Below are positions 12,984 through 34,237 of a stretch of 64,000 nt of DNA, piece by piece; the stretch's first letter is position 1; each line of letters opens with the position of its first letter. The stretch comes from Odoribacter sp. AF15-53 (GTDB taxonomy: Bacteria > Bacteroidota > Bacteroidia > Bacteroidales > Marinifilaceae): positions 62,001 through 126,000 of the forward strand of contig NZ_QUHC01000011.1 of assembly GCF_003479425.1 (NCBI RefSeq). Direction: 5' to 3'. Both the position numbers and the translations under genes were made by a program. Under the pieces are notes generated by a model that was not told where the DNA came from, ran no database searches, and saw only the letters and a program-made list of their open reading frames with translations.

Positions 12984-13301
12984 ATGGCAACACTAGAAAT
13001 TCAAGGAAAAACATTCGAAGTAGACGGGGACGGATTCCTCACTGATCCTTCAATCTGGAACGAAGACGTGGCAAAATTATTCGCGGCATCAGACGGAATC
13101 AATGATTTGACGGATAACCACTGGGCCGTGATCAAAATCATCCGCAATAACTTTGAAGAAAAAGGGAACGCTCCCATGGTTCGTACCATCTGCAAAGAAA
13201 CCGGATTAAAATTGAAAGATATTTACGAGTTATTCCCGTTAGGACCAGCCCGGGGTGCGTGTCGGGTGGCAGGATTACCCAAACCTGACGGTTGCGTCTA
13301 A
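12984..13301 (+). CDS. dsrC: DsrC/TusE-family sulfur-carrier protein
   Basis: Starting at MATLEIQG gives 105 residues, the normal DsrC length. The longer frame from 12936 adds residues with no family match. The C-terminal arm carries both functional cysteines, Cys93 and Cys104, spaced C-X10-C with Cys104 penultimate. That is the form able to make an intramolecular disulfide or carry a trisulfide, unlike TusE with a single cysteine. In sulfite reducers DsrC receives sulfur from DsrAB and is reduced by DsrMK. DsrM-like and DsrK-like genes follow within 6 bp, but no dsrAB is present. It is cytoplasmic. Another source of sulfane sulfur, perhaps the cysteine desulfurase downstream, is inferred. 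Confidence 0.92.
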   Translation: MATLEIQGKTFEVDGDGFLTDPSIWNEDVAKLFAASDGINDLTDNHWAVIKIIRNNFEEKGNAPMVRTICKETGLKLKDIYELFPLGPARGACRVAGLPKPDGCV

Positions 13302-13306
13302 TACCC

Positions 13307-13975
13307 ATGACCATGTCTTGGTATATTTGGACCTCGTTAGCTGCACTTCTTTTTTGTGTAGTACTACTGGGGGGATATTTTCTACGGTTATTAAAAAAGG
13401 GTTCTCCCAAGGACCTTTCTCAAAAATCCGGGAATATTGCCCAAGCAGTCTGTTACTCTTGTATCGGAGCCATGTCACCTATGCAAAAAGAATCAGCATA
13501 CTTACACCTGCCCACTTATACGGCAGGTATATTTTTTCATATAGGAAACTTTCTGGCTATAGCCGTGTACCTTCTATTCACGCTCGCGGTTATTTTTCAG
13601 TTCCAACTTCCTATTGAAAGCGCAACGAACCTCATCGTCATTTTAGTGGCGGCAGTCATTTTTATCGCGGCAGTTTGCGGGTTGGCTTTATTCATCAAGC
13701 GACTGGCAAAAAAAGAACTCCGGGAACTATCCTGCGCGGATGATTATATCTCGAATCTTCTCTGCACGGTGATGCTTTTCCTGACGACTTATTCCCTGTT
13801 GACGTTACAATTCGGGACCGCGTATTATATCATAATGGCGCTCCTTTTCGTGTGGATACCCCTGGGTAAAATCAAACACGTGCTTTACTTTTTCTTTGCC
13901 AGATATCATTTGGGCTTTTTCTACGGTTGGCGTGGGACATGGCCTCCTAAAAAAGCAGTACAATATGACAAATAA
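13307..13975 (+). CDS. DsrM/NarI-like heme b membrane subunit
   Basis: The protein of about 222 residues has five predicted membrane helices. Histidines within or next to helices (LPTYTAGIFFHIGNF and GKIKHVLYFFFARYHLG) could ligate heme b as in DsrM, HmeC and NarI. The start is ATG at 13307 or 13313, 5-11 bp after the dsrC stop. An earlier ATG at 13292 would overlap dsrC. Its 3' end overlaps the DsrK-like start by 11 bp, which implies translational coupling. The likely role is to pass electrons from menaquinol to the cytoplasmic DsrK-like subunit. It is shorter than DsrM of sulfate reducers, so family membership is by context and pattern. Confidence 0.72.
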   Translation: MTMSWYIWTSLAALLFCVVLLGGYFLRLLKKGSPKDLSQKSGNIAQAVCYSCIGAMSPMQKESAYLHLPTYTAGIFFHIGNFLAIAVYLLFTLAVIFQFQLPIESATNLIVILVAAVIFIAAVCGLALFIKRLAKKELRELSCADDYISNLLCTVMLFLTTYSLLTLQFGTAYYIIMALLFVWIPLGKIKHVLYFFFARYHLGFFYGWRGTWPPKKAVQYDK

Positions 13976-15278
13976 TATCACCAACGAACAAAAAGCCAAA
14001 GCTCTTGCGATCCTCTCGAACACGAGCGACAGCAAACTGGAAACCCACCTGAACGCGTGTGTACGCTGCGGCTTGTGTGCATCCAGTTGCATGTACTACC
14101 TCACCATGAAAGAAGGTAAATACATCCCGGCCCGAAAAGTCGATCAGGTCAGTTCTATTTACAGGCGTTACCAAACGTGGCAGGGCGCCATGTTCCCCTC
14201 ACTGTTCAACGCCCGGGAACTAAATGAAGAAACGTGCGACGAAATGATTGATTCCCTCTTCGGCTCATGCACCATGTGCGGCCGCTGCGTGAAACATTGC
14301 TCCATCGGCGTGGACATCCCGTTCATCGTGAAAAAAGGGCGAGAAATGCTTGCCGCCATGGACCTTGTCCCGAAAACCCTTCAGGCAACCGTGGATGCGG
14401 CCATCAACACCGGGAACAACATGGGCATTCCTACCGAAGAATTCGTGGACACGATACAATGGATGGAAGAAGAACTACAAGACGAGTTGGAAGACCCAAA
14501 AGCCGGGATATTCCTGGATCAACCCGACAAGAACGTCTTCTACACGCTGAACCCGCGGGAACCGAAATTCTTCCCCCTATCCATATCCGCCATGGCAAAA
14601 GTATTTTACGCTGCCGGCGAGGAATGGACATTGTCATCCAAGTACTACGACGTGACCAACTACGGGTATTTCAACGGTAATAACGCCGAGGCAACCCAAA
14701 TTGCCCGCAACCTTTACGACGAGATCCACCGCCTGCACGGCAAACGTCTCGTGCTCGGGGAATGCGGACACGGTTCAAGAGCCATGCGCTGGGAAGGTCC
14801 CAATTATCTCAAAACCCAATACGATTTCGACACGATTACCGTGGTGGAACTCATCGGAGAATACATTCGTAGTGGAAAAATCAAGCTCGACAAAACCCTG
14901 AATGACAAAGTAGTCACCATACATGACCCGTGTAATCTAGTGCGCAACGGGGGACTACTCAACGAGATTCGTTTCGTGGTAAATTCAGCCGCCGCGCATG
15001 TCGTTGAAATGACACCTTACGGCACGGATAATTTCTGTTGCGGGGGTGGCGGAGGAGCTTTAGCTATGAGTGAATACAACGAACGTCGTCTCAAAATCGG
15101 CCAGATCAAAGCCGACCAGATCACCGCAACCAAAGCCGAGATTGTCGTAACCCCGTGCCACAACTGCGTGGATCAGCTAACCCAAATAAATCACACTTAT
15201 AAACTGGGCATCACCATAAAAACGGTGGCAGAGTTGGTAGCGGATGCCTTAGTAATTGAAAATGAAATGATTCAGTGA
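13965..15278 (+). CDS. DsrK/HdrD-like iron-sulfur CCG-domain protein
   Basis: The start at MTNNITNEQ gives 437 residues. Two 4Fe-4S motifs of form CX2CX2CX3C lie at Cys32-42 and about 103-113. A partial first CCG region with GECGHGSRAM (the ECGH form of DsrK) follows, and then a complete CCG domain with DPCN, FCCGGGGG and TPCHNC that would hold the noncubane disulfide-reducing cluster. HdrD and DsrK reduce heterodisulfides or the DsrC trisulfide at this site. Together with the membrane protein before it and dsrC it makes a menaquinol:DsrC oxidoreductase-like unit. A heterodisulfide other than DsrC as substrate is possible but less likely given the gene order. Confidence 0.87.
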   Translation: MTNNITNEQKAKALAILSNTSDSKLETHLNACVRCGLCASSCMYYLTMKEGKYIPARKVDQVSSIYRRYQTWQGAMFPSLFNARELNEETCDEMIDSLFGSCTMCGRCVKHCSIGVDIPFIVKKGREMLAAMDLVPKTLQATVDAAINTGNNMGIPTEEFVDTIQWMEEELQDELEDPKAGIFLDQPDKNVFYTLNPREPKFFPLSISAMAKVFYAAGEEWTLSSKYYDVTNYGYFNGNNAEATQIARNLYDEIHRLHGKRLVLGECGHGSRAMRWEGPNYLKTQYDFDTITVVELIGEYIRSGKIKLDKTLNDKVVTIHDPCNLVRNGGLLNEIRFVVNSAAAHVVEMTPYGTDNFCCGGGGGALAMSEYNERRLKIGQIKADQITATKAEIVVTPCHNCVDQLTQINHTYKLGITIKTVAELVADALVIENEMIQ

Positions 15279-15358
15279 TTGACATCACTCATTTTAATGC
15301 GGTTAGCTTGTGCAGTTGGAATCTAAAATTTAAAATCTAAAATTATAACACGAGCATT

Positions 15359-16522
15359 ATGAGCAAATTAATCTACTTAGACAATTCAGCAACCAGCTTC
15401 CCGAAGCCGGATGTAGTTTATGATTTCATGAACGATTTCTACCGTAAACATGGTGTAAACCCAGGACGTTCCGGTTTCGACGCCGCCGTTGAAACCGAGG
15501 AAGTAGTAAACTCTACCCGTAAAATGTTGACCAAACTCTTCAACGGGGGAACCGACCACAATCGTCTAACATTCAGTTACAACGCAACCGATTCTTTAAA
15601 CCTGATCATCAACGGCCTGGTTGAAAAAGGGATTCACGTGGTTTCCACCATGCTGGAACACAACTCCGTGTTGCGCCCGCTTAACATGCATCATCAAAAC
15701 GGCACCATAGACGTAACTTACGTACCTTTTGACGAAAATGGTTACGTGCATCCTGATGATATCAAGAAAGCTATCCAACCAAACACCAAGTTCGTGGTCG
15801 TAACCCATTGCTCCAACGTACTGGGAACCATCCAACCGCTGGCAGAAATCGGTAAAGTCTGCAAGGAAAAAGGCGTGATTTTCGTGGTTGACGGAAGTCA
15901 GGGTGCCGGGGCTGTCGATCTGGACATGCAAGCTTCAAATATCGACGTGTATTGCTTCACGGGTCACAAATGCCTCATGGGACCGACAGGAATCGGAGGT
16001 TCATACGTGCGTGAAGGAATCGAGATCAAACATACCCGTGCCGGAGGTACCGGAGTTCGTTCCGCTTACCCCGTACACTTGGACGAATACCCCTACCGTC
16101 TGGAATACGGAACGCTTAACTTGTTGGGTGTTGCCGGATTGAACGCCGGGGTTAAATGGATTCAGGAACAAGGCATCATGAACATCCATCACCGGGAAAT
16201 ACAGTTATGGGATAAACTCCGGAAAGCATTACAAGATATCGAAGGAGTTAAAACATACTGCGCTAACAGTCCTGAAAACAAGAACCCGGTTCTTAGCTTC
16301 AACATTAACGGTTTCGATTCCGCTGACGTGGGCACGATGCTCGACGTGGATTACAATATCGCCGTACGTACCGGGCTACAATGCGCCCCGAAAGTACACG
16401 AGGTTATCGGCACGTTCGACATTCACGGGACAGTTCGCATGAGTATCGGTGCGTTCACGACAGAAGAAGACGTTAACACCGCCATCGAAGCCGTGAAAGA
16501 AATCGCCGCAATCAAGAATTAA
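15359..16522 (+). CDS. Class V aminotransferase-fold cysteine desulfurase (EF2568-type)
   Basis: The 387-residue PLP enzyme has the pyridoxal lysine in CFTGHKCLMGPTG, the N-terminal LDNSATSFPKP of cysteine desulfurases, and the catalytic cysteine in RTGLQCAP. It resembles the cysteine-desulfurase family modelled on EF2568 rather than IscS or SufS. It would release sulfur from cysteine as an enzyme persulfide. It lies 80 bp after the DsrK-like gene on the same strand, separated only by a repeat-rich spacer, so co-transcription is likely. Feeding persulfide to DsrC is an attractive but untested inference. No selD or yedF gene, common partners of this family, is nearby. Confidence 0.88.
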   Translation: MSKLIYLDNSATSFPKPDVVYDFMNDFYRKHGVNPGRSGFDAAVETEEVVNSTRKMLTKLFNGGTDHNRLTFSYNATDSLNLIINGLVEKGIHVVSTMLEHNSVLRPLNMHHQNGTIDVTYVPFDENGYVHPDDIKKAIQPNTKFVVVTHCSNVLGTIQPLAEIGKVCKEKGVIFVVDGSQGAGAVDLDMQASNIDVYCFTGHKCLMGPTGIGGSYVREGIEIKHTRAGGTGVRSAYPVHLDEYPYRLEYGTLNLLGVAGLNAGVKWIQEQGIMNIHHREIQLWDKLRKALQDIEGVKTYCANSPENKNPVLSFNINGFDSADVGTMLDVDYNIAVRTGLQCAPKVHEVIGTFDIHGTVRMSIGAFTTEEDVNTAIEAVKEIAAIKN

Positions 16523-16563: not shown

Positions 16564-16604
16564 CCCCCCTTTCCCTCCTACCCGGGAGGAAAGGGGGGTG
16601 CTTT
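16564..16604 (+). terminator. Terminator of the dsrC-cysteine desulfurase group
   Basis: CCCCCCTTTCC and GGAAAGGGGGG form an 11-bp GC-rich outer stem, with a smaller CCCGGG palindrome inside the loop. A short T run follows (CTTTT). Confidence 0.7.
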
Positions 16605-16748: not shown

Positions 16749-17939
16749 ATGTACGGAAAATTTCAAGACTTTTTAAAGACTGAAATCCAGTCAATAAAAG
16801 ATGCCGGCTTATACAAGAGCGAAAGAATTATCGTTACCCCGCAAGATGCTGAAATTAAACTTGCCACGGGAGAAACTGTATTAAACTTTTGTGCAAACAA
16901 CTACCTAGGACTTTCTTCTAACGCTGCCGTGATCGAGGGAGCCAAGAAAGCATTGGACAGCCGTGGTTACGGTATGTCTTCAGTACGTTTCATCTGCGGA
17001 ACCCAAGATATTCACAAAGAACTGGAAGCTAAAATCTCTCAATTCTTCGGGACGGAAGACACCATTCTCTACGCGGCTTGTTTTGATGCCAACGGAGGTG
17101 TATTCGAACCATTATTCGGACAAGAAGATGCCATCATCTCCGACGAGTTGAATCACGCTTCTATCATTGATGGTGTTCGTCTTTGTAAAGCCGTACGTTA
17201 CAGATATAAACACGCCAACATGGACGATCTGGAAGAGCAATTGAAAATCTCTCAGGCTCAACGTTACCGGATCATCGTTACCGATGGTGTATTCTCCATG
17301 GACGGAGATATTGCCAAAATGAACGAAATCTGTGATCTGGCTGAAAAATACAATGCCTTGGTAATGGTTGACGATAGCCACGCTGCCGGATTTATCGGTG
17401 AAACAGGACGTGGAGCCGCCGAATATCACCATTGCATGGAACGTGTTGACATTTTCACCGGAACCCTTGGTAAAGCTCTGGGTGGAGCCATGGGAGGATA
17501 CACGACCGGTAAAAAAGAAATTATTGACATGTTGCGTCAACGCTCAAGACCTTATTTGTTCTCTAACTCTCTATCTCCGGCAATCTGCGGTGCTTCTATC
17601 GCCGTGTTCGATATGCTGACCAAGAGTACGGAACTGAGAGACCGGGTAATGGACAACGCTAACTATTTCCGGGCCAAATTAACGGAAGCCGGATTCGACT
17701 TGAAACCGTCTGAATCAGCAATCTGTGCCTTGATGCTTTACGATGCAGTTCTTTCTCAACAATTTGCTGCCGAATTACAGAAAGAGAACATCTACGTTAC
17801 CGGATTCTACTACCCGGTTGTTCCGAAAGGACAAGCCCGTATTCGTATCCAATTGTCTGCCGCTCATACACGTGAACAATTGGATCGTGCATTGGCTGCC
17901 TTCATCAAGATTGGTAAAAAATTGGGTGTTATCAAGTAA
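16749..17939 (+). CDS. kbl: Glycine C-acetyltransferase (2-amino-3-ketobutyrate CoA ligase)
   Basis: This 396-residue alpha-oxoamine synthase matches Kbl throughout, with ANNYLGLSSN near the N terminus, VDDSHAAGFIGETGRG binding the cofactor, and the PLP lysine in TGTLGKALGGAMGG. It splits 2-amino-3-ketobutyrate with CoA into glycine and acetyl-CoA, or runs the reverse reaction, completing threonine degradation after threonine dehydrogenase. No tdh gene is beside it; it stands alone between two terminators. It fits the amino-acid-fermenting character of the window. Confidence 0.93.
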   Translation: MYGKFQDFLKTEIQSIKDAGLYKSERIIVTPQDAEIKLATGETVLNFCANNYLGLSSNAAVIEGAKKALDSRGYGMSSVRFICGTQDIHKELEAKISQFFGTEDTILYAACFDANGGVFEPLFGQEDAIISDELNHASIIDGVRLCKAVRYRYKHANMDDLEEQLKISQAQRYRIIVTDGVFSMDGDIAKMNEICDLAEKYNALVMVDDSHAAGFIGETGRGAAEYHHCMERVDIFTGTLGKALGGAMGGYTTGKKEIIDMLRQRSRPYLFSNSLSPAICGASIAVFDMLTKSTELRDRVMDNANYFRAKLTEAGFDLKPSESAICALMLYDAVLSQQFAAELQKENIYVTGFYYPVVPKGQARIRIQLSAAHTREQLDRALAAFIKIGKKLGVIK

Positions 17940-23464: not shown

Positions 23465-24118
23465 ATGCTTCCTATGAGTAAATTTATTTCTATCGAAGAG
23501 GCTGTATCAAAAGTAAAAGATGGCATGACCATCATGGTAGGCGGATTCCTCGCAAACGGAACCCCTAACAAAATCGTTGATGCGTTAGCAAAATCAGGCG
23601 TGAAAAACCTGACGTTGATCTGTAATGACACGGCTTACCCGGACAAAGGAGTCGGTCAATTGATTGCCAACAAACAAGTAAAAAAACTTTTCGTGTCACA
23701 CATCGGGACAAACCCGCACACGAGCGAACAAATGAATAGCGGAGAACTGGAAATCGAATTCTGCCCGCAAGGTTCATTGGCCGAACGCGTACGTGCAGGC
23801 GGTTGCGGTCTGGGAGGAATCCTAACTCAAACCGGAATGGGTACCATCGTGGCTGAAGGGAAACAGATCGTCAACGTGGATGGCAAAGACTACTTGTTGG
23901 AAAAACCGTTGAGAGCCGATATCGCATTGGTTGGTGCCAGCCTTGGAGACAAAGCCGGAAATCTGGTTTACCGGGGAACATCTCAAAATTTCAACCCGTT
24001 AATGGCTTCTGCCGCCGACTTGGTAATTGCAGAGATTAACGAACTGGTTGAAATCGGTGAAATCGCCGCAGAGAACGTGAAGACCCCCTCAATCATGGTG
24101 GACTTCATCGTGAAATGA
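23465..24118 (+). CDS. atoD: Acetoacetate:butyrate CoA-transferase, alpha subunit
   Basis: The 217 residues match the alpha subunit of family I CoA transferases, with VGGFLANGTPN binding CoA and the conserved region CPQGSLAERVRAGGCGLGG. Translation may begin at 23465 or at the second ATG (23474, MSKFIS). With the beta subunit at 34238 it moves CoA from butyryl-CoA to acetoacetate, linking lysine cleavage to butyrate release. Alpha and beta genes are normally adjacent; here 10 kb of pathway genes lie between them. It is the first gene of the long plus-strand cluster. Confidence 0.9.
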   Translation: MLPMSKFISIEEAVSKVKDGMTIMVGGFLANGTPNKIVDALAKSGVKNLTLICNDTAYPDKGVGQLIANKQVKKLFVSHIGTNPHTSEQMNSGELEIEFCPQGSLAERVRAGGCGLGGILTQTGMGTIVAEGKQIVNVDGKDYLLEKPLRADIALVGASLGDKAGNLVYRGTSQNFNPLMASAADLVIAEINELVEIGEIAAENVKTPSIMVDFIVK

Positions 24119-24195
24119 TCTACGATTGACGATTTATGATTTTCTAATCAAAAATCATTACATCACCCAATTAATAAAATTCAAAATTCAAGGAA

Positions 24196-24582
24196 ATGGA
24201 AAAATCAATGATAAGATTAAGAATGAGTGCAAAAGACGCTCATTATGGTGGTAACTTAGTTGACGGCGCACACATGGTACATTTGTTCGGGGATGTGGCC
24301 ACGGAATTATTAATCATGCATGACGGTGACGAAGGGCTGTTTGTTGCTTATGACAACGTGGAATTCTTGGCTCCTGTTTATGCCGGAGATTATATCGAAG
24401 CTACCGGGGAGATCGTGAAAGTAGGAAACACCTCCCGCAAAATGGTTTTCGAGGCGAAGAAAGTTGTCGCTGCAAGACCTGACATTTCGGCTTCGGCAGC
24501 GGATGTACTAGAAGAACCGATCGTAGTTTGCCGTGCAAGCGGAACCTGCGTGGTGAAAAAAGAAGACCAGAGAAAGAAATAA
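24196..24582 (+). CDS. kal: 3-aminobutyryl-CoA ammonia-lyase
   Basis: This 128-residue hotdog-fold protein matches Kal of lysine fermenters, with [16 protein letters not shown] and [17 protein letters not shown]. It removes ammonia from L-3-aminobutyryl-CoA to give crotonyl-CoA, which Bcd-EtfAB reduces to butyryl-CoA. It lies 14 bp before kce, the preceding step, and the order fits clustered transcription. A general thioesterase-like hotdog would be the alternative by fold alone, but the context makes Kal nearly certain. Confidence 0.93.
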
Positions 24583-24596
24583 TCTAAATTATTATT

Positions 24597-25424
24597 ATGG
24601 AGAAATTAATTATCACAGCAGCCATTTGCGGGGCAGAAGTTACCAAAGAACAAAACCCTGCCGTTCCTTATACAGTAGAAGAGATCGTGAGAGAAGCGAA
24701 ATCCGCTGTAGACGCAGGCGCAGCTATTGTTCACCTTCATGTTCGTGAAGATGACGGTACCCCGACCCAAAGCAAAGCACGCTTCAAAGAGTGTATCGAC
24801 GCTATTTATAAGGTATGCCCGGACGTTATTTTGATCCCCTCTACCGGAGGAGCCGTGGGAATGACCGCTGAAGAACGTCTTCAACCGACAGAACTTTTCC
24901 CCGAAATGGCAACTCTGGATTGTGGTACCTGTAACTTCGGAGACGAGGTTTTCGAGAACACCATGCCGATGATGAGAGATTTCGGCAAGAGAATGCTCGA
25001 AAACAACATCAAACCGGAATACGAATGTTTTGAAATGGGACATCTTGACACCGTATTGACCATGGCTAAAAAAGGTCAGGTTCCCGGAGCCCCGATGCAA
25101 TTCAACTTCGTTCTCGGCGTTCCCGGATGTACCCCAGCCACGGTACCGAATCTTTGCTGGCTTGTAAACGCAATCCCCGCAGGTTCTACGTGGACGGCAA
25201 CCGGAATCGGTCGTCATGCCTTCACTCTTGCAGCTCCCGCTATCGCAATGGGAGGTAACGTTAGAGTAGGCTTTGAAGATAATCTTTACTTGGAAAGAGG
25301 TGTACTGGCTAAATCCAATGGCGAATTAGTAGCAAAAGTAGTTCGTATCGCCAAAGAATTAGGGCGTCCGATCGCTACCTCCGCAGAGGCAAGAGAAATT
25401 TTAGGATTAAAACCGTTAAAATAA
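24597..25424 (+). CDS. kce: 3-keto-5-aminohexanoate cleavage enzyme
   Basis: The 275-residue protein belongs to the beta-keto acid cleavage family (DUF849). The zinc ligands appear in IVHLHVRE near residues 45-50, and the substrate loop is around PSTGGAVGMTAEER. It condenses 3-keto-5-aminohexanoate with acetyl-CoA to give 3-aminobutyryl-CoA and acetoacetate. It lies between kal and kdd, which use its product and supply its substrate. Length and motifs are normal. Confidence 0.95.
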   Translation: MEKLIITAAICGAEVTKEQNPAVPYTVEEIVREAKSAVDAGAAIVHLHVREDDGTPTQSKARFKECIDAIYKVCPDVILIPSTGGAVGMTAEERLQPTELFPEMATLDCGTCNFGDEVFENTMPMMRDFGKRMLENNIKPEYECFEMGHLDTVLTMAKKGQVPGAPMQFNFVLGVPGCTPATVPNLCWLVNAIPAGSTWTATGIGRHAFTLAAPAIAMGGNVRVGFEDNLYLERGVLAKSNGELVAKVVRIAKELGRPIATSAEAREILGLKPLK

Positions 25425-25456
25425 TTGATTTATAAATTTTCAAATTTAATTATACT

Positions 25457-26500
25457 ATGCAAAAGAAAGGAAATAAATACGGCACCCACCGTGTAATCGA
25501 ACCCAAGGGAGTGTTACCCCAACCCGCCAACAAGATTGATAACAACATGGACGAGATCTACGACAACGAAATCCTGATCGACGTTCAGACTTTAAATATC
25601 GACTCGGCTAGTTTCACCCAGATCGAACAACAAGCTGGTGGCGATAAAGCAAAAATCGCCGAGATCATGCTGGAAATTGTTGCAAAACAAGGAAAACATC
25701 GTAACCCGGTAACCGGATCAGGCGGTATGTTGTTAGGTACGGTTGAAAAAATCGGTGATGCATTGAAAGGTAAAATTGATTTGAAAGAAGGTGATAAGAT
25801 CGCAACTTTGGTTTCTCTTTCTTTGACTCCTCTTCGTATTGACAAGATCAAAGATATTCGCCCGGACATCGACCAAGTAGACATCGACGGTAAGGCTATC
25901 CTTTTCGAAAGCGGAATCTACGCTAAGATCCCGGCTGACCTTCCTGAAAACTTAGCATTGTCTGCATTAGACGTGGCCGGAGCTCCCGCTCAAACTGCTA
26001 AATTGGTTAAACCCGGTGACACCGTGTTAATCATCGGTGCTGGAGGTAAATCAGGTATGTTGTGCTGCTACGAGGCCAAAAAACGTGCAGGCGTTACCGG
26101 TAAAGTAATCGGCTTATGCCACAGCCAGAAGAGTACCGAACGTTTACAGAAACTTGGTTTCTGTGACTATGTATTCTCTGCCGATGCAACTCAACCTGTT
26201 CCGGTAATGGAGAAAATCGAGGAATTGACCAATGGCGAAATGTGTGACGTTACGATCAACAACGTAAATATCACTGATACTGAAATGACTTCTATCCTTT
26301 GCACGAAGAACACGGGTATCGTTTACTTCTTCTCTATGGCAACCAGCTTCACGAAAGCAGCCCTTGGAGCAGAAGGTGTTGGTAGCGACGTGACCATGAT
26401 CGTTGGTAACGGTTACACGAAAGGACATGCAGAGATCACGCTTCAAGAACTGAGAGAAAGCGAGGCTTTGAGAAAGATCTTTACTGAACTTTACGCTTAA
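25457..26500 (+). CDS. kdd: L-erythro-3,5-diaminohexanoate dehydrogenase, copy 1
   Basis: The 347 residues match Kdd from the conserved start (YGTHRVIEPKGVLPQPA) to the end. The nucleotide-binding loop is LIIGAGGKSGMLCCYEAK. The enzyme oxidises 3,5-diaminohexanoate to 3-keto-5-aminohexanoate with release of ammonia. At the end of the second Rossmann strand it has KVIGLCHSQKS, without the acidic residue that usually selects NAD. Its tandem paralogue has an acidic residue there. The two may therefore differ in cofactor; this is inference from one motif. Confidence 0.94.
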   Translation: MQKKGNKYGTHRVIEPKGVLPQPANKIDNNMDEIYDNEILIDVQTLNIDSASFTQIEQQAGGDKAKIAEIMLEIVAKQGKHRNPVTGSGGMLLGTVEKIGDALKGKIDLKEGDKIATLVSLSLTPLRIDKIKDIRPDIDQVDIDGKAILFESGIYAKIPADLPENLALSALDVAGAPAQTAKLVKPGDTVLIIGAGGKSGMLCCYEAKKRAGVTGKVIGLCHSQKSTERLQKLGFCDYVFSADATQPVPVMEKIEELTNGEMCDVTINNVNITDTEMTSILCTKNTGIVYFFSMATSFTKAALGAEGVGSDVTMIVGNGYTKGHAEITLQELRESEALRKIFTELYA

Positions 26501-26507
26501 TTAATTA

Positions 26508-26597
26508 CATGATTCTGTGATTTCCGATTCCGAGATTACAATTCTCTGACCGGAGATCACGGAATCATCTAATCATAGAATCATTTAATCACAAAAT
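26508..26597. repeat. Intercistronic inverted repeat between the two kdd genes
   Basis: GATTCTGTGATTTCC near the left end and GGAGATCACGGAATCA on the right form an imperfect hairpin built from the words GATTC and GTGATT. A similar hairpin lies at 29033-29096 after kamA and another related stretch at 42262-42300. It could modulate mRNA stability within the operon. Confidence 0.65.
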
Positions 26598-26603
26598 TAA
26601 TAA

Positions 26604-27641
26604 ATGGACAAGGGTTGTAGATACGGAACACACAGGGTAATTACTCCGGAAGGCACACTTCCTCAACCGGCATTAAAGCTGGATAACACGATGAGCATTT
26701 ATGACAACGAATTGTTGATAGATGTGCAAACATTAAACATTGATTCGGCCAGTTACACGCAGATAAAAAGCGCTTGCAACGGGGACGCGGACAAAATGAA
26801 AGAAATGATTCTTTCTATCGTGGCAGAAAGAGGTAAAATGCAAAATCCTGTTACCGGATCGGGTGGTATGCTTATCGGAACGGTAAAAGAGATCGGGCCT
26901 AATTTCCCGGACAAATCACTGAAAATCGGAGACAAAATTGCCACGCTGGTTTCCTTATCCCTGACTCCATTAAAAATAAACAAGATCAAACATCTTGATC
27001 CGGCATCGGATCAGGTTGACGTGGATGCACAAGCGATCCTATTTGAAAGCGGTTTATACGCCGTGCTACCGAATGATATTCCGGAAAAACTGGCATTAGC
27101 CGTGTTGGACGTGGCAGGAGCCCCGGCTCAAGTAGCCCGTCTGGTAAAAGAAGGAGATACGATATGTATCATCGGAGGGGGTGGAAAGTCTGGAGTACTT
27201 TGTTGCTACCAGGCCATGAAAAACGTCGGACCTTACGGAAAGGTCATCGTGGTGGAATACTCGGAAGAGAACGCCCGAAGAATTAAAGATATGAATCTCG
27301 CCACTCACGTTATTGTTGCCGATGCGACAAAAGTGATGGACGTGTATAAAAAAGTGACCGCGATTGCAGGGGAAAGAGGTTGTGAGGTAACGATTAACAA
27401 TGTAAATGTTCCCTCAACAGAAATGACCTCGATTCTCGTCACAAAAGGACAAGGATGCGTTTATTTCTTCTCCATGGCGACCAGCTTCACGAAAGCGGCA
27501 CTGGGAGCTGAAGGAGTAGGAAAAGATATAAATTTAATCGTAGGAAACGGATATGCCAAAGGACACGCCGAACTGACACTGAGTATCATTCGGGAGTCGG
27601 TGGAAATCCGGGAACTATTTAATAGACTGTACGTTAAATAA
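26604..27641 (+). CDS. L-erythro-3,5-diaminohexanoate dehydrogenase paralogue, copy 2
   Basis: The 345 residues are strongly similar to the preceding kdd over the whole length, with the same start pattern (YGTHRVITPEGTLPQPA), CVYFFSMATSFTKAALGAEG, and a loop IIGGGGKSGVLCCYQAM. It differs at the second Rossmann strand, KVIVVEYSEEN, where a glutamate should favour NAD. Tandem kdd genes are not part of the usual lysine cluster. It may widen cofactor use, act on another diamino acid, or be a backup. It shows no broken motifs. Confidence 0.9.
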   Translation: MDKGCRYGTHRVITPEGTLPQPALKLDNTMSIYDNELLIDVQTLNIDSASYTQIKSACNGDADKMKEMILSIVAERGKMQNPVTGSGGMLIGTVKEIGPNFPDKSLKIGDKIATLVSLSLTPLKINKIKHLDPASDQVDVDAQAILFESGLYAVLPNDIPEKLALAVLDVAGAPAQVARLVKEGDTICIIGGGGKSGVLCCYQAMKNVGPYGKVIVVEYSEENARRIKDMNLATHVIVADATKVMDVYKKVTAIAGERGCEVTINNVNVPSTEMTSILVTKGQGCVYFFSMATSFTKAALGAEGVGKDINLIVGNGYAKGHAELTLSIIRESVEIRELFNRLYVK

Positions 27642-27782
27642 AATCGCAATGCGATTTTATAGATAAAAGATAAAAATTAAAAGTTGAAAAAAGCGTTGGC
27701 TGGTGCAGTTGAAAGCTAGAATTAAAAAAGCGCTCGCGCTTATGGCAATTTAAAATTTAGAATTTAAAATAAATAAACAGAG

Positions 27783-29027
27783 ATGGCTGAAAGCAGACGA
27801 AAAGAATTTTTTCCAGAAGTAACAGATGAACAATGGAATGACTGGAAATGGCAAGTGAAAAACAGAATTGAGACTGTGGATCAATTAAAAAAATATCTTG
27901 ATCTGGATCCCAGCGAAGAAGAGGGTATTCGCAACGCATTAAAAATGTTGAGAATGGCAATCACCCCGTATTATTTAAGTTTAATCGACAAGAACAATCC
28001 ACATTGTCCTATCCGCAAACAAGCGGTTCCTTCTGCCTTGGAGCTACACAAAGCAAGTGCAGACTTGGAAGACCCGTTACACGAAGACAGCGATTCTCCC
28101 GTACCGGGATTAACTCATCGGTATCCGGACCGGGTGTTATTCTTGATCACGGACCAATGTTCCATGTATTGCCGTCACTGTACCCGCAGACGTTTTGCCG
28201 GACAAAAGGACAGTGCCTCCCCGACCGAACGCATTGATAAATGTATCGAATACATCGCCAAGACGCCACAAGTAAGAGACGTACTGCTGTCCGGTGGTGA
28301 CGCATTGTTGGTAAGCGACGATCGTTTGGAATACATCATCAGCCGCTTGAGAGCCATCCCTCACGTGGAAATCATCCGCATCGGTAGCCGTACCCCGGTA
28401 GTATGCCCGCAAAGAATTACCCCGGAGCTGGTAAATATGCTGAAAAAATATCACCCGATCTGGTTAAATACTCACTTCAACCACCCGGATGAAATCACGG
28501 AAGAATCAGCTGCCGCTTGCGCTCGTTTGGCGGATGCAGGTATCCCGTTAGGAAACCAGACCGTATTATTGAGAGGGATCAACGATTGTACCTACGTGAT
28601 GAAAAAATTGATGCACGGATTAGTAAAAATGCGTGTTCGTCCGTACTACATCTATCAATGTGACCTTTCCATGGGTATCGAGCATTTCCGTACTCCGGTT
28701 TCCAAAGGTATCGAAATCATCGAGAACTTACGCGGACACACTTCCGGATATGCCGTTCCCACGTTCGTGGTTGACGCTCCCGGTGGTGGCGGTAAGACCC
28801 CGGTAATGCCGAACTACGTGATCTCTCAATCTCCGAACCGGGTTGTATTGAGAAACTACGAAGGTGTTATCACCACCTACACGGAACCGACAGATTACAA
28901 GGAAGAGTGCCACTGCCCGGAATGTGAGCAAGCTCGCAAAGAAGGTGTTGCCGCACTGTTACATGGCGATATGCTCTCTATCGAACCGAAACATCTGGCT
29001 CGTAACGAGAGAAATCATCACGAATAA
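27783..29027 (+). CDS. kamA: Lysine 2,3-aminomutase
   Basis: This 414-residue radical SAM enzyme has the cluster motif CSMYCRHC (CX3CX2C) at about 125-132. The PLP-binding lysine lies in APGGGGKTPVMPNYV, and a C-terminal CHCPECEQ segment contributes to zinc binding in the family. It interconverts L-lysine and L-beta-lysine, the first step of the pathway. It follows kdd2 after a 140-bp spacer full of repeat words. Length is typical for KamA, longer than the EpmB-type homologues. Confidence 0.96.
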   Translation: MAESRRKEFFPEVTDEQWNDWKWQVKNRIETVDQLKKYLDLDPSEEEGIRNALKMLRMAITPYYLSLIDKNNPHCPIRKQAVPSALELHKASADLEDPLHEDSDSPVPGLTHRYPDRVLFLITDQCSMYCRHCTRRRFAGQKDSASPTERIDKCIEYIAKTPQVRDVLLSGGDALLVSDDRLEYIISRLRAIPHVEIIRIGSRTPVVCPQRITPELVNMLKKYHPIWLNTHFNHPDEITEESAAACARLADAGIPLGNQTVLLRGINDCTYVMKKLMHGLVKMRVRPYYIYQCDLSMGIEHFRTPVSKGIEIIENLRGHTSGYAVPTFVVDAPGGGGKTPVMPNYVISQSPNRVVLRNYEGVITTYTEPTDYKEECHCPECEQARKEGVAALLHGDMLSIEPKHLARNERNHHE

Positions 29028-29032
29028 AATAA

Positions 29033-29100
29033 TTAAGTGATTCCGTGATTTCCGATTAAGTGATTTAATCTCTTCTCCGAAAATCACAGAATCACTTTAT
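29033..29100. repeat. Intercistronic inverted repeat between kamA and kamB
   Basis: AGTGATTCCGTGATTTCCG and CGAAAATCACAGAATCACTT form an imperfect inverted repeat with the same words as the element at 26508-26597. It lies wholly within the gap and probably forms an mRNA hairpin. Confidence 0.65.
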
Positions 29101-29119
29101 CAATAATCATCAATAGCCA

Positions 29120-30130
29120 ATGTTTATCGAGGAGATTCTAAAATACAACAGTATAGCAATCGTGGGTCTGGCCAAAAATGCCGGAAAAACGGAATGCTTG
29201 AACTATATTCTTCGGAAAGTGAAGAATACGGGAAAGCGTTTCGCCCTTACCTCAATAGGCATCGACGGGGAAAACAGAGATCAGGTTTGCCAAACGCCCA
29301 AACCGGAAATTGAAATCTTCGAAGACATGATTTTCATCACGTCTGAGATGCATTACCGGTCCAAACGTCTGGTGGCAGAGATCATGGATGTCAGCACACA
29401 ACAAACCTCGTTAGGACGTCTGGTAACCGCCAGAGCTGTCAGTTCGGGGAAAGCCTTGTTATCAGGGCCTGCCGACACGGGATCATTAAAAGCCCTCATC
29501 CAAGGGATGAAACGTTTTGACGTGGACACCACCATCGTCGACGGGGCTCTCTCCCGACTTAGTCTCAGCTCTCCGGCCGTGACGGAAGCCATGGTGTTAG
29601 CCACGGGAGCCGCGGTATCCTGTAATATACCTCAACTGGTTAGAAAAACAAAATACGTGTATGACCTCATTTGCTTGGAGACAGCAGAACCGGAGATGAT
29701 CCGGCAACTGATTGACATCGAGCAAGGCATGTGGTCCATTGACGAAAACGGGAAAGTTCACGATCTGAACATTCCTTCCGTGTTTATGCTTGAAAATAAC
29801 AAAGACGAAGTTTTCAAGTACGGGAACACATTATACGTGGCAGGCGCCATCAGTGACAAATTATTGCAATTCCTACGGCAACAGAAACAAATCAAGGAGA
29901 TCACACTGATCATCCGTGATTTCACCAAAATGTTCGCCTCCATGGAAACATACTATGCTTTCCTCAAAAAAGGCGGAACCATGAAGGTATTGCAAAAAAG
30001 TAAACTATTGGCTGTTTGTATCAATCCCCAATCCCCGGAAGGATATTGTCTGGATTCCGACGAACTGAGAGTAGCCATGCAAGAGTGCTTGGGTATCCCT
30101 GTTTATGACGTCAAGAGAATTGAAAATTGA
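29120..30130 (+). CDS. kamB: KamB, lysine 5,6-aminomutase reactivase subunit
   Basis: The 336 residues carry a P-loop near the N terminus (VGLAKNAGKTECLNY) and otherwise match the protein coded between kamA and the MutS-like gene in lysine-fermentation clusters, now named KamB. The family is thought to restore adenosylcobalamin-dependent lysine 5,6-aminomutase after inactivation, with KamC as the ATPase partner. That role is annotation knowledge, not shown here. It lies after kamA and is followed by kamC with a 97-bp repeat-rich gap. It is cytoplasmic. Confidence 0.85.
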   Translation: MFIEEILKYNSIAIVGLAKNAGKTECLNYILRKVKNTGKRFALTSIGIDGENRDQVCQTPKPEIEIFEDMIFITSEMHYRSKRLVAEIMDVSTQQTSLGRLVTARAVSSGKALLSGPADTGSLKALIQGMKRFDVDTTIVDGALSRLSLSSPAVTEAMVLATGAAVSCNIPQLVRKTKYVYDLICLETAEPEMIRQLIDIEQGMWSIDENGKVHDLNIPSVFMLENNKDEVFKYGNTLYVAGAISDKLLQFLRQQKQIKEITLIIRDFTKMFASMETYYAFLKKGGTMKVLQKSKLLAVCINPQSPEGYCLDSDELRVAMQECLGIPVYDVKRIEN

Positions 30131-30187
30131 AAATTGAAAATGAATTTAGATTGAAGGAATTAAAAAGCGACCGCCCCGTGCGGCTGG

Positions 30188-30220
30188 AATCTAAAATCTA
30201 AAATCATTAAATCTAAAATT
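30188..30220. repeat. 33-bp repeat upstream of kamC, identical to one upstream of etfA
   Basis: Built from AATCTAAAAT words, this stretch is identical over 33 bp to 38108-38140. Both copies sit within 10 bp of a start codon. Shorter relatives occur at 15318-15344, 27748-27768 and 42990-43018. Confidence 0.85.
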
Positions 30221-30227
30221 AAAAAAG

Positions 30228-31643
30228 GTGTTTTTAAGAAGTGCCATAGAAGAAATTAACGGGTTCAGATTCATGATCGACAAACTGGAAATTCAATCCG
30301 GTCTGGCGAAACGAATCTTGAATACACTACCTTATTTGCATACCCCGGAAACGATTGCCCAGGAATTGGACAAAACCGAGGTCATGCGCAATATTCTACA
30401 AACCTCCGAACTAACAGACACCATTACCAAGATCAAAGTCAAACTGATGCAAGTGAAGGACATCCGGGGAACAGCAAACCGGGTGACGGAATCACAGATA
30501 CTGGATGACATTGAACTATTTGAATTAAAAGCCTTTTCTTTGCTGGCCATGGAGATACGGGAATTACTCCTATCAGCAAATATCACGGTTGTTTCACTCC
30601 CGGACTTGGAACCGGTAGTAAACATTCTGGATCCCGAAAAGATGCGTATCCCTCATTTTTACGTGTACGATGCCTATTCCCCGGAACTGGCAGCCCTGCG
30701 GGCAAAAATGAAAACGCTTAAAATGGATGAAAAAACAGAAGAACGAGTACTGGACCAACTTCAATTCGAACACACGGAACTAGAAGACCGGATTCGGGAA
30801 AAGTTATCCGAACAGATTCATCCCTATAAAAAAGAAATTAACGAAGCCCTGGTAAACACGGCTACTTTAGATATCCTGTTGGCAAAAGCCCAACAGACCA
30901 TTGATATGCAGTTGTGCAAACCGGAAATTTCCACTAGCACGACTCGCTATATAAAAATATTCAACCCACAAGTAAAAGAGGTACTTTGGCAAGAAGGTAA
31001 GAAATTCCAGGCAATTGACATTGACATCGAGCAAGGAGCCTGTTTGATTACCGGAGCCAACATGGCCGGGAAAAGTGTTATACTGAAAACAGTGGCACTG
31101 GCACAAACGCTATTCCAATTCGGCTTTTACGTTCCGGCAGAACAAGCCGAGATTGCCTTGGTTGACGAAGTTCTCCTTTGCATCGGGGACGAGCAATCCG
31201 AATTAAGCGGCCTATCCTCGTATGCCTCAGAAATGCTACGGGTAAATGCCATCGTTCAAGACGTGAAAGCAGGTAAAAATGCCTTGATCCTAATTGACGA
31301 GCTGGCAAGAACCACCAACCCCACGGAAGGAAAAGCGATCGTGAATGCCATGCTTGACTTCCTGACGGATAAAGGAGCCCGTTCCTTGATTACCAGCCAT
31401 TACAGCGGGATCAAAGCCCGTTGCAAAAAGATGCGGGTAAAAGGATTTGTCAAAGAATACGTGAAAGGTCAATTGACCATCAACAATATAAACGAGTTTA
31501 TTGATTACTCGCTAATCGAAGATACTCATGACTCCGTGCCGCAAGAAGCCATGCGCATCGCCCGCATTCTGGGCGTTGACGAAGAATTGTTGGACAAAGC
31601 AGAGGAGTTTTTAGATGACGAAGAGAAGAAGAACAGAAATTAA
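30228..31643 (+). CDS. kamC: KamC, MutS-like lysine 5,6-aminomutase reactivase ATPase
   Basis: The 471-residue protein has the MutS core and ATPase without mismatch-recognition domains. Walker A is GANMAGKS, Walker B is ALILIDELART, and a SSYASEMLR segment corresponds to the MutS signature region. Translation appears to start at GTG (30228), since the first good ATG is at 30273 within the conserved region. It accompanies kamB and kamDE in lysine clusters and is annotated as the ATPase that reactivates the B12 aminomutase. A DNA-repair role is unlikely given the context. Confidence 0.87.
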   Translation: MFLRSAIEEINGFRFMIDKLEIQSGLAKRILNTLPYLHTPETIAQELDKTEVMRNILQTSELTDTITKIKVKLMQVKDIRGTANRVTESQILDDIELFELKAFSLLAMEIRELLLSANITVVSLPDLEPVVNILDPEKMRIPHFYVYDAYSPELAALRAKMKTLKMDEKTEERVLDQLQFEHTELEDRIREKLSEQIHPYKKEINEALVNTATLDILLAKAQQTIDMQLCKPEISTSTTRYIKIFNPQVKEVLWQEGKKFQAIDIDIEQGACLITGANMAGKSVILKTVALAQTLFQFGFYVPAEQAEIALVDEVLLCIGDEQSELSGLSSYASEMLRVNAIVQDVKAGKNALILIDELARTTNPTEGKAIVNAMLDFLTDKGARSLITSHYSGIKARCKKMRVKGFVKEYVKGQLTINNINEFIDYSLIEDTHDSVPQEAMRIARILGVDEELLDKAEEFLDDEEKKNRN

Positions 31644-31658
31644 TAACAGAACAAAGAT

Positions 31659-33215
31659 ATGCAGAACAGTAAACTAGGGCTTGATTTCACCAAAGTGGCA
31701 CACGCGAAGGACGTGGCCCGGAAGATAGCCGACGATGTACAGAAATTCGTGGAACAATACTCTACCGTTGCCGTTGAGCGTACGCTATGCCGTTTACTCG
31801 GTATTGACGGGGTCGACGCTAACACCGTGCCCCTACCCAACGTGCTGGTAGACGAGATCAAAGACAAAGGCGTGTTAGGTGAAGGTATTCTATTCTTCCT
31901 CGGAAACGCTATCGTGGAGACCGGTATGAACCCGCAACAAATAGCAGAGAAAGTTGCAGTGGGAGAACTGGATATCACCACGTTACCCGTCCACCCGACA
32001 GATAAGATTAAAGCCGCATTGAAACCTCACGTTGACGCAAGTATCAAACGGATCAGTGATCGCCGTGCCAAGAAGGAAAACTACTTAAACACGATCGGGG
32101 AAGGTCCGAAACCTTACCTCTACGTAATCGTGGCAACCGGAAACATCTATGAAGACGTCGTACAGGCACAGGCTGCCGCACGTCAGGGAGCTGACATTAT
32201 TGCCGTAATCCGTACAACAGGGCAGAGTTTGTTGGATTACGTACCTTATGGAGCTACCACAGAAGGATTCGGGGGAACATTCGCTACACAGGAAAACTTC
32301 CGCATCATGCGTAAGGCCTTGGATGAAGTAGGCGAAGAAGTAGGCCGTTACATCCGCTTATGTAACTATTGTTCCGGTCTGTGTATGCCGGAAATCGCGG
32401 CTATGGGAGCATTGGAAGGATTGGACGTGATGCTGAATGACGCTCTTTATGGTATCCTGTTCCGGGATATTAACATGCAACGTACACTGGTTGACCAGTT
32501 CATGTCAAGAGTAATCAACGGATTCGCCGGAGTAATCATCAACACCGGAGAAGATAACTATCTGACAACCGCTGATGCCGTGGAACAGGCACACACCGTG
32601 CTGGCATCCGACTTGATCAACGAGCAATTAGCCTTGATCGCCGGACTGAAAGAAGAACAAATGGGATTAGGACACGCTTTCGAAATGGACCCGTCTCTTG
32701 AAAACGGTTTCTTGTTGGAATTGTCTCAGGCTCAAATGACCCGTGAGATTTTCCCGAAAGCCACGTTAAAATATATGCCTCCGACCAAATTCATGACGGG
32801 AAATATTTTCCGCGGACATATTCAGGATGCACTTTTCAACATGATCGGAATCTGGACTTCACAAGGAATCCAATTATTGGGTATGCCAACGGAAGCGATC
32901 CACACGCCGTTCATGTCCGACCGTTACCTTTCTATCGAAAACGCCAAATATATCTTCGGTAACATGAAGAACATCGGCGACGAAGTAGAATTTAAAAAAG
33001 ACGGTATCATCCAAAGTCGTGCCAAGGAAGTATTGAACAACGCTATCGCATTACTTGAAAACATTGAACGTGAAGGCCTTTTCACCGCTTTGGAAAAAGG
33101 AATCTTCGGTGACGTGAAACGTCCGAAGAATGGTGGTAAAGGACTTGACGGAGTTGCTGCCAAAGGCACCAACTACTACAACCCGTTTATCGAGTTAATG
33201 CTGAAAGGCAATTGA
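31659..33215 (+). CDS. kamD: Lysine 5,6-aminomutase alpha subunit
   Basis: At 518 residues it matches KamD, the catalytic TIM-barrel subunit that binds adenosylcobalamin and PLP (for example RQGADIIAVIRTTGQSLLDYVPYGAT and LCNYCSGLCMPE). With KamE it moves the terminal amino group of beta-lysine to C5, giving 3,5-diaminohexanoate. It starts 15 bp after kamC. Confidence 0.95.
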   Translation: MQNSKLGLDFTKVAHAKDVARKIADDVQKFVEQYSTVAVERTLCRLLGIDGVDANTVPLPNVLVDEIKDKGVLGEGILFFLGNAIVETGMNPQQIAEKVAVGELDITTLPVHPTDKIKAALKPHVDASIKRISDRRAKKENYLNTIGEGPKPYLYVIVATGNIYEDVVQAQAAARQGADIIAVIRTTGQSLLDYVPYGATTEGFGGTFATQENFRIMRKALDEVGEEVGRYIRLCNYCSGLCMPEIAAMGALEGLDVMLNDALYGILFRDINMQRTLVDQFMSRVINGFAGVIINTGEDNYLTTADAVEQAHTVLASDLINEQLALIAGLKEEQMGLGHAFEMDPSLENGFLLELSQAQMTREIFPKATLKYMPPTKFMTGNIFRGHIQDALFNMIGIWTSQGIQLLGMPTEAIHTPFMSDRYLSIENAKYIFGNMKNIGDEVEFKKDGIIQSRAKEVLNNAIALLENIEREGLFTALEKGIFGDVKRPKNGGKGLDGVAAKGTNYYNPFIELMLKGN

Positions 33216-33357
33216 AAATTGAGAATTAAAAATTGAAAATGAAAGGGGCTGCCTTATCATTTTCAATTTCAGATTTTCAAGAGAGTGAATAAAAATAAAA
33301 TTTAAACCGATGCGATTGATGATTTTCAATTTTGCATTTTCAATTTTCAATTCATTA
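33213..33357. repeat. Low-complexity inverted repeat between kamD and kamE
   Basis: The left part has ATTGAAAATTGAGAATT-type words and the right part has their complements (CATTTTCAATTTTCAATT). Together they form an AT-rich imperfect hairpin filling the intercistronic gap. The same word family recurs at 30119-30143, 40219-40230, 40925-40958 and, inside a coding region, 44011-44040. Confidence 0.65.
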
Positions 33358-34145: not shown

Positions 34146-34149
34146 CATT

Positions 34150-34232
34150 TTAAATTTTAGATTTTAAATTTTAAATTACAGGACTCATCGGTAATCAATT
34201 TACAATCTAAAATTTACAATTTAAAATTGAAA
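34150..34232. repeat. Low-complexity inverted repeat between kamE and atoA
   Basis: ATTTTAGATTTTAAATTTTAA on the left and ATCTAAAATTTACAATTTAA on the right can pair imperfectly. The words are those of the TCTAAAAT family seen elsewhere in the cluster's spacers. Confidence 0.6.
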
Positions 34233-34237
34233 ACGGT

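What the first reader, a model, noticed from the sequence alone, without database searches (positions are those of the whole stretch)
12984..16522. DsrC, DsrM/DsrK-like proteins and a cysteine desulfurase without DsrAB
The DsrC protein keeps both arm cysteines (C-X10-C), the form that carries a trisulfide and is reduced by DsrMK. A heme b membrane protein and a two-cluster CCG protein follow directly, with coupling by overlap. No sulfite reductase is present. The next gene is a cysteine desulfurase. The order suggests a route in which persulfide from cysteine is loaded on DsrC and reduced by menaquinol through the DsrMK-like pair, releasing sulfide. That would be a respiratory or redox-balancing use of cysteine sulfur not described for gut Bacteroidota as far as I know.
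Basis: partly seen in the sequence, partly recalled or inferred. Interest (0 to 1): 0.85.

Follow-up and report, generated by a model that had tools for sequence, protein, structure and literature searches.

The report
Cysteine-fed DsrC–DsrMK sulfide module
Many anaerobic Bacteroidota, including gut Butyricimonas, carry a conserved four-gene set in which the last step of sulfate respiration (DsrC and its membrane reductase) is paired with a cysteine desulfurase instead of a sulfite reductase, which suggests a quinol-driven way of turning cysteine sulfur into sulfide.

Summary
In detail: dsrC, a NarI/DsrM-like cytochrome gene, a DsrK/HmcF/TmcB-like CCG gene and a cysteine desulfurase (CSD) gene lie at 12984-16522 of a Butyricimonas-like window. 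(1) No siroheme sulfite reductase domain in 3 of 3 Butyricimonas genomes or in 37 of 38 genomes with the four-gene cluster. (2) The order dsrC-M-K-CSD is kept in 38 of 80 loci; of the 42 genomes behind the other loci, 40 still hold the CSD ortholog. In 198 Bacteroidales genomes, the 23 with a two-cysteine DsrC are exactly the 23 with this CSD; 22 have the DsrK-like gene, none a NIR_SIR protein. The other 42 DsrC hits lack the first arm cysteine. TusB/DsrH was over cut-off in 0 of 38 genomes. Best reading: the CSD persulfurates DsrC, and the DsrMK-like pair reduces DsrC with menaquinol, releasing sulfide. The unit is near-certain; the sulfur transfer is likely, with an in-vitro precedent (PMC3397948); direction, donor and respiratory role are inferred.

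The parts
12984..13301 (+). dsrC, 105 aa; arm cysteines C93 (codon 13260-13262) and C104 (13293-13295), third conserved C70
   Evidence: PF04358; C93, C104 and C70 in 39/39 linked sequences; best PDB match 2xsj_C, named TusE/DsrC/DsvC family (111.6 bits, residues 1-105 on 1-105, no gap)
13307..13975 (+). DsrM/HmcE-like membrane cytochrome b gene (start 13307 or 13313), NarI-like fold
13965..15278 (+). DsrK/HmcF/TmcB-like protein: two [4Fe-4S] motifs plus one CCG-type motif CX34CCX38CXXC
15359..16522 (+). cysteine desulfurase of TIGR01977; PLP Lys204 (15968-15970), Cys342 (16382-16384); subfamily-specific Cys205 and Cys301
   Evidence: Lys204 and Cys342 in 39/39; Cys205 38/39 and Cys301 39/39, 0/14 each in the outgroup
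16564..16598 (+). strong hairpin after the CSD gene, possible end of the transcript
   Evidence: the 86-base stretch folds at -34.6 kcal/mol, z -4.43; the terminator scan did not list it

Best explanation
The four genes form one sulfide-producing module. The cysteine desulfurase takes sulfur from cysteine (leaving alanine) as a persulfide on Cys342 and hands it directly to the C-terminal Cys104 of DsrC. Cys93 of DsrC then attacks, releasing sulfide and leaving a Cys93-Cys104 disulfide. The DsrK-like protein, at its CCG-type cluster, reduces this disulfide (or the persulfide or trisulfide form) with electrons that the NarI-like cytochrome b takes from menaquinol. Net: cysteine + menaquinol -> alanine + sulfide + menaquinone. 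The cysteine desulfurase thus replaces DsrAB as the enzyme that loads DsrC. Shown here: genes, motifs, order, co-retention, absence of the siroheme and TusB/DsrH routes to DsrC. Inferred: every chemical step in these organisms, the direction, the donor and the purpose (electron sink or sulfide supply).
For: Order kept in 38 of 38 loci that hold all four, out of 80; no other neighbour family in more than 14 of 111 loci, many of them short. In 198 Bacteroidales genomes the 23 with a two-cysteine DsrC are exactly the 23 with the CSD ortholog at 61% identity or more, one of them (G197) in two pieces; 22 of 23 have the DsrK-like gene. DsrK x CSD: 22 of 22 against 1 of 176, Fisher p 2.6e-28, not corrected for shared ancestry. 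In the exception G122 dsrC and the CSD gene are direct neighbours near a contig end. Of 42 genomes whose DsrK locus lacks the CSD, 40 hold it elsewhere and 38 hold DsrC. In a second sample both genes are in the same 2 of 395 genomes, one of which (G050) was the seed. No NIR_SIR protein in 37 of 38 four-gene-cluster genomes and in 23 of 23 of the sample. TusB/DsrH over cut-off in 0 of 38 (one weak match below it, G011). Sister desulfurases have a TusA-type carrier beside them in 11 of 14 loci (two checked as YedF). IscS plus cysteine, or sulfide, persulfurates DsrC at the penultimate cysteine in vitro (PMC3397948, section read), and the first arm cysteine is reported only from DsrAB organisms with few exceptions (same paper, passages). 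Odoribacteraceae have MK-9/MK-10 (PMC5167729, passages).
Against: No biochemistry or expression data. Linkage is not universal: in 42 of 80 loci the CSD is not beside dsrK, and DsrM was not searched in those genomes. The K subunit is below the DsrK, HmcF and TmcB equivalog cut-offs and the M subunit below that of HmcE, so their reaction is by analogy; EtfD, the only PDB sequence match of the K profile, is recalled to serve ETF and menaquinone. In the IscS experiment sulfide alone also loaded DsrC, so it is a precedent, not proof of direct transfer. Free energies that I recall put the cysteine/(alanine + sulfide) couple near menaquinone, so the gain would be small and the direction depends on sulfide level. 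One 16S study reports Butyricimonas correlating negatively with H2S in hens (PMC6813079, passages), weak and indirect. One cluster genome (G004) has a NIR_SIR protein. Co-occurrence comes partly from shared ancestry.
Confidence: 0.6

Rival explanations
1. Same sulfur transfer, but for supply and not for respiration: DsrC carries cysteine-derived sulfur to a biosynthetic acceptor (Fe-S clusters, thio-cofactors, sulfide for assimilation), and the DsrMK-like pair only keeps DsrC reduced.
For: The DsrC relative TusE is a sulfur carrier in tRNA thiolation in E. coli (PMC3397948, passages); sister desulfurases pair with a TusA-type carrier.
Against: No biosynthetic gene is conserved beside the four. 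A membrane reductase would be a costly way to keep a carrier reduced (inference). The CSD is absent from 175 of 198 sampled Bacteroidales, so there is no general need.
Confidence: 0.2
2. DsrC is a dithiol redox hub with another partner: the DsrMK-like pair oxidises DsrC dithiol and feeds menaquinone, or reduces disulfides made elsewhere; the desulfurase only serves the iron-sulfur clusters of the DsrK-like protein.
For: The only PDB sequence match of the K profile is EtfD, and the membrane subunit is nearest NarI and EtfD by fold; such proteins are recalled to work with other partners and in either direction.
Against: The CSD is in all 22 DsrK genomes of the sample and also in G122, where dsrC and CSD are adjacent and no DsrK was found: the tightest tie is CSD with the two-cysteine DsrC. 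The dsrC of G122 ends about 420 bases from the contig end, so a lost dsrMK is not excluded.
Confidence: 0.1
3. Selenium module: the CSD is a selenocysteine lyase and DsrC carries selenium.
For: Selenocysteine lyase SclA is a near family (312.7 bits), and sister desulfurases lie beside YedF, named for selenium metabolism.
Against: SclA cut-off of 525 bits not met; no further gene conserved in the neighbourhood. Selenium genes were not searched genome-wide.
Confidence: 0.06
4. An unseen sulfite reductase (siroheme type missed, or octahaem MccA) loads DsrC as in sulfite reducers, and the desulfurase is a passenger.
For: One of 50 genomes has a NIR_SIR protein, in a frame that looks AsrC/Fsr-like to me (G004); MccA-type enzymes were not searched, and the window's own genome is not held.
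Against: 0 of 3 Butyricimonas, 37 of 38 cluster genomes and 23 of 23 sampled two-cysteine genomes lack NIR_SIR, while the control search finds it in 11 of 14 well-known genomes. A passenger would hardly be kept through scattering.
Confidence: 0.04

Closest known systems
Terminal Dsr module of sulfate and sulfite reducers (DsrC + DsrMK(JOP))
   Same: Two-cysteine DsrC, co-linear with DsrC chains solved with dissimilatory sulfite reductase; membrane cytochrome-like protein and two-cluster CCG protein in tandem; DsrMK-only versions without JOP are known (PMC10504309, passages)
   Different: No DsrAB; a cysteine desulfurase takes its place; K subunit nearer TmcB/HmcF and under all three cut-offs
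E. coli Tus relay (IscS-TusA-TusBCD-TusE-MnmA)
   Same: Cysteine desulfurase sulfur ends on a DsrC-family protein (PMC3397948, passages)
   Different: No TusB/DsrH over cut-off in 38 genomes; DsrC here has two arm cysteines; a membrane reductase follows
A. vinosum DsrEFH-DsrC sulfur transfer
   Same: Persulfide on the penultimate DsrC cysteine; loaded in vitro by IscS plus cysteine or by sulfide (PMC3397948, section read)
   Different: Sulfur oxidation, donor DsrEFH, works with DsrAB
TIGR01977 desulfurase-YedF pairs of other Bacteroidales
   Same: Related desulfurase with a neighbouring sulfur/selenium carrier gene
   Different: 34-43% identical; carrier is TusA-like; lack Cys205 and Cys301 in 14/14
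Single-cysteine DsrC of Bacteroidales
   Same: DsrC family in the same order
   Different: Arm has one cysteine (42 of 42 hits); in 8 of 8 loci read no DsrMK or CSD beside it; in L113 the neighbours are a type III SQR and a protein like DsrE2 but under its cut-off
Syntrophic propionate oxidiser MAG4 (PMC10579422, passages)
   Same: dsrC and a cysteine desulfurase gene expressed, with cysteine discussed as sulfur source
   Different: Has asrAB; no such gene cluster or cysteine-to-DsrC route is described in the passages seen
EtfD / NarI
   Same: NarI-like cytochrome b working with a CCG protein
   Different: EtfD is one chain; its partner is recalled to be ETF, not DsrC

Membership tests
DsrC (reductive type) | PF04358 / TIGR03342 over cut-off | tested here: met
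   123.6 and 102.4 bits
DsrC (reductive type) | two arm cysteines, C-X10-C, penultimate Cys | tested here: met
   39/39
DsrC (reductive type) | occurs with DsrAB | tested here: not met
   NIR_SIR in 0/3 Butyricimonas, 1/38 cluster genomes, 0/23 sampled; own genome not held
Dissimilatory sulfite reduction (DsrABCMK) | DsrAB siroheme enzyme | tested here: not met
   in relatives
DsrMK complex | NarI-like cytochrome b subunit | tested here: inconclusive
DsrMK complex | K subunit with two [4Fe-4S] motifs and a CCG catalytic motif | tested here: met
DsrMK complex | NCBIfam DsrK equivalog cut-off (400 bits) | tested here: not met
   227.7 bits
Hmc/Tmc complexes | HmcF (750) or TmcB (735) equivalog cut-off | tested here: not met
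   291.6 and 292.3 bits
DsrMK complex | reduces DsrC disulfide/trisulfide with menaquinol | not testable with these tools
   needs biochemistry
Cysteine desulfurase TIGR01977 | over cut-off, PLP Lys and catalytic Cys | tested here: met
   433.8 bits over 377; K204, C342 39/39
Selenocysteine lyase SclA | NF040779 cut-off 525 bits | tested here: not met
   312.7 bits
TusE in TusBCDE | TusB/DsrH in the genome | tested here: not met
   0/38 over cut-off, one weak match (17.3 bits against 24.4) in G011; control rings in E. coli

The most novel reading that the evidence does not exclude
Cysteine is a terminal electron acceptor: a distinct form of anaerobic sulfur respiration ('cysteine respiration') in which a dedicated desulfurase, evolved in lock-step with a two-cysteine DsrC, replaces sulfite reductase, letting anaerobic Bacteroidota dispose of electrons from menaquinol as sulfide in guts, rumen and other anoxic places. 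Such organisms would be invisible to dsrAB surveys of sulfidogens.
Probability: 0.4. Interest if true: 0.9.

Novelty: new variant of a known kind. Interest (0 to 1): 0.75.

Why it matters
DsrC's first arm cysteine has been taken as a mark of organisms with DsrAB, with a few listed exceptions (PMC3397948, passages). Here is a group without a detected siroheme sulfite reductase in which that cysteine tracks a cysteine desulfurase one to one (23 of 198 genomes). If the proposed reaction is right, surveys that count sulfide producers by dsrAB or by cysteine lyases miss a quinol-linked route, and the modular history of the Dsr pathway gains a branch where the loader of DsrC was swapped. It is directly testable in a cultured type strain, B. 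synergistica DSM 23225 (L003).

Tried and rejected
TusE/tRNA thiolation: rejected, no TusB/DsrH over cut-off in 38 genomes. A DsrE-domain search (PF02635) in 10 of those 38 genomes gave a match in 7, over cut-off in 6. In the two Butyricimonas genomes with a match (G001, G002) the frame is about 820 aa; G003 had none. Four genomes (G005, G008, G018, G038) have 120-135 aa frames over the cut-off, not followed up, so another DsrE-type donor is not excluded there. Conserved extra partners: none seen; the commonest other neighbour families are in 14 of 111 loci at most (frames of 80 aa or more, clusters by at least 30% identity over 60% of length, and the loci L081-L111 are short). Tree of the DsrK-like protein, 81 rows: the unlinked state needs 2 changes, starred branches force 1 (FastTree, no bootstrap), so linkage looks old and lost rarely, but this is no proof of direction. 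The lack of NIR_SIR is not significant as avoidance (13 of 198 have it, expected overlap with DsrK 1.4, p 0.37): it shows absence only. CSD structure model (pLDDT 83.1, under 50 at 34-38, 226-233 and 247-252) was not used for claims. No CSD-DsrC fusion was seen in the Pfam columns of the 120 best of 7345 CSD relatives. Promoter scan: 14 sites against 7.1 expected, of a type not made for Bacteroidota, not used. Papers: ten searches, passages of eleven papers and one section of PMC3397948 gave no description of this four-gene set; subscription papers, including Venceslau 2014 and Santos 2015, were not read.
Full report

CONSERVED UNIT. Of the best 80 loci (of 247 confirmed) returned for the DsrK-like family, 38 carry dsrC, dsrM, dsrK and the CSD gene together, always in this order and strand. 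By the script's choice of start codons most spacings are under 60 bases; larger ones are in L002 (164 before the CSD), L007 and L015 (144-288 before dsrM or dsrK, probably start-choice effects) and L075 (2.3 kb before the CSD). Record titles and the tree labels place them in Odoribacteraceae, Rikenellaceae, Lentimicrobiaceae, unnamed Bacteroidales and an Ignavibacteriae MAG. No other gene family is shared by more than 14 of 111 loci. In the other 42 loci the CSD is not beside dsrK (five of them, L022, L027, L028, L031 and L033, keep dsrC-M-K). Of these 42 genomes 40 hold the CSD ortholog elsewhere (67-78% identity) and 38 hold a DsrC (its arm was not read there); no genome lacks both. DsrM was not searched in them. 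On a quick tree of the DsrK-like protein the unlinked state needs 2 changes.

AN INDEPENDENT SAMPLE. 198 genomes of the order of G003 (B. synergistica, itself in the sample) were searched with four queries. DsrC: 60 genomes, 65 hits. CSD at E 1e-60: 36 genomes; 23 have a match of 61-98% identity (G197 in two pieces), 15 have one of 35-43%, two of them (G178, G237) both kinds. DsrK-like at E 1e-40: 22 genomes. NIR_SIR: 13 genomes. I fetched all 65 DsrC hits and read the arm: 23 have Cys at the first arm position, 42 have Ser (22), Thr (17), Ala (2) or Met (1). The 23 genomes with the two-cysteine form are exactly the 23 with the close CSD. 22 of the 23 have the DsrK-like gene. The 23rd, G122, has dsrC and the CSD gene about 50 bases apart near a contig end and no DsrK found. 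None of the 23 has a NIR_SIR protein. DsrK against CSD gives Fisher p 2.6e-28, not corrected for kinship. In some genomes of the sample the CSD is inverted (L139-L141) or on another contig (G171: L119/L120) and is still kept. A second sample of 395 genomes around the Ignavibacteriae relative has CSD and DsrK in the same 2 genomes, the seed G050 and G456.

WHAT LOADS DsrC. In known systems DsrC gets sulfur from DsrAB or from DsrEFH/TusBCD. NIR_SIR is absent in 3/3 Butyricimonas and present in 1 of 47 further genomes, a frame in MAG G004 that looks AsrC/Fsr-like to me; the positive control rings in 11 of 14 genomes. TusB/DsrH is over cut-off in 0 of 38 cluster genomes, with one weak match in G011. 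DsrE-domain frames of 120-135 aa exist in 4 of 10 genomes tested, not in Butyricimonas, so another donor is not excluded in those four. The desulfurase is the one conserved partner able to give sulfur. A. vinosum DsrC incubated with E. [quoted passage not shown] the capacity is lost when the penultimate cysteine is changed and kept when the first arm cysteine is changed (PMC3397948, section 7 read). As sulfide alone also works, this is a precedent and not proof of direct transfer. The same paper states that the first arm cysteine is found only with DsrAB, exceptions Methylococcaceae, Marinobacter and Lawsonia (passages). The present group is a further exception, and it comes with an explanation.

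SPECIALISATION OF THE DESULFURASE. Fourteen of the fifteen lower TIGR01977-like matches of the sample were fetched (34-43% identical) and form an outgroup on one side of a starred branch. 11 of 14 have a TusA-type carrier frame directly beside them; the two that I scanned are YedF. Cys205 beside the PLP lysine and Cys301 are near-invariant in the module (38/39, 39/39) and absent in the outgroup (0/14 each); so is Arg227 (39/39 against 0/14). This fits a subfamily adapted to a new acceptor, but the roles of these residues are unknown.

HOW IT MOST LIKELY WORKS. Shown: the parts, motifs, their co-retention and the lack of the siroheme and TusB/DsrH routes. Likely: persulfide transfer from Cys342 to DsrC Cys104. 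Inferred: attack by Cys93, sulfide release, and reduction of DsrC by the CCG protein with menaquinol through the cytochrome b. Odoribacteraceae contain MK-9 and MK-10 (PMC5167729, passages). From recalled free energies, cysteine + H2 -> alanine + H2S yields roughly 60 kJ/mol, so the couple lies close to menaquinone; the reaction would run at low sulfide but give little energy by itself, more like an electron sink. The nearby genes 23465-39134 are a lysine-to-butyrate fermentation set, consistent with an organism that must balance electrons, but no link is shown. A hen-gut 16S study finds Butyricimonas negatively correlated with H2S (PMC6813079, passages), which speaks mildly against a strong sulfide source.

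COMPARED WITH WHAT IS KNOWN. It works like the terminal part of dissimilatory sulfite reduction but is not that pathway, because DsrAB was tested in relatives and not found. The DsrMK part is a relative of, not a member of, the named DsrK, HmcF or TmcB groups. A large Dsr survey (PMC10504309, passages) mentions DsrMK without DsrAB in a few assemblies and holds neither 'bacteroid' nor 'desulfurase' at a word start in its main text. The nearest account seen is a syntrophic propionate oxidiser expressing dsrC, asrAB and a cysteine desulfurase, without such a cluster in the passages seen (PMC10579422). Ten literature searches found no account of the four-gene set in the open library.

Noticed in passing
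window 23465-39134: Lysine-to-butyrate fermentation cluster (CoA transferase, KAL, KCE, KDD, KamA, KamB/C reactivase, lysine 5,6-aminomutase, thiolase, acyl-CoA dehydrogenase, ETF); the KDD gene is present twice in a row (25457-26500 and 26604-27641).
   Followed up: partly
L113-L118, L121, L123: A second class of DsrC in Bacteroidales (one arm cysteine) sits after a 406-426 aa frame (in L113 a type III sulfide:quinone reductase of selenoprotein subtype, 646 bits) and, in 7 of 8 loci, a 222-235 aa frame, and before a 165-181 aa frame (in L113 DsrE2-like, 92 bits, under the cut-off of 210): seemingly a sulfide-handling module. G147, G178, G199 and G221 have both DsrC classes.
   Followed up: partly
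window dsrC Cys70 (codon 13191-13193): A third cysteine of DsrC is invariant in 39/39 module sequences; 2xsj_C and 2v4j_C have serine there (alignment).
   Followed up: no
L124-L137: TIGR01977-type desulfurase beside a TusA-type carrier (YedF in the two scanned), in L125 and L130 also a short DUF3343-like frame (name recalled).
   Followed up: partly
L081: One MAG with the module (G004) also holds a NIR_SIR protein on another contig; contamination of the bin not excluded.
   Followed up: partly
window 16749-17939: Glycine C-acetyltransferase gene (TIGR01822) directly after the module; also next to it in L003, not a conserved neighbour in the other loci.
   Followed up: no
L122: In G169 the frame after dsrC-dsrM (468 aa) is not recognised as DsrK by BLAST, while the DsrK-like gene lies on another contig.
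   Followed up: no
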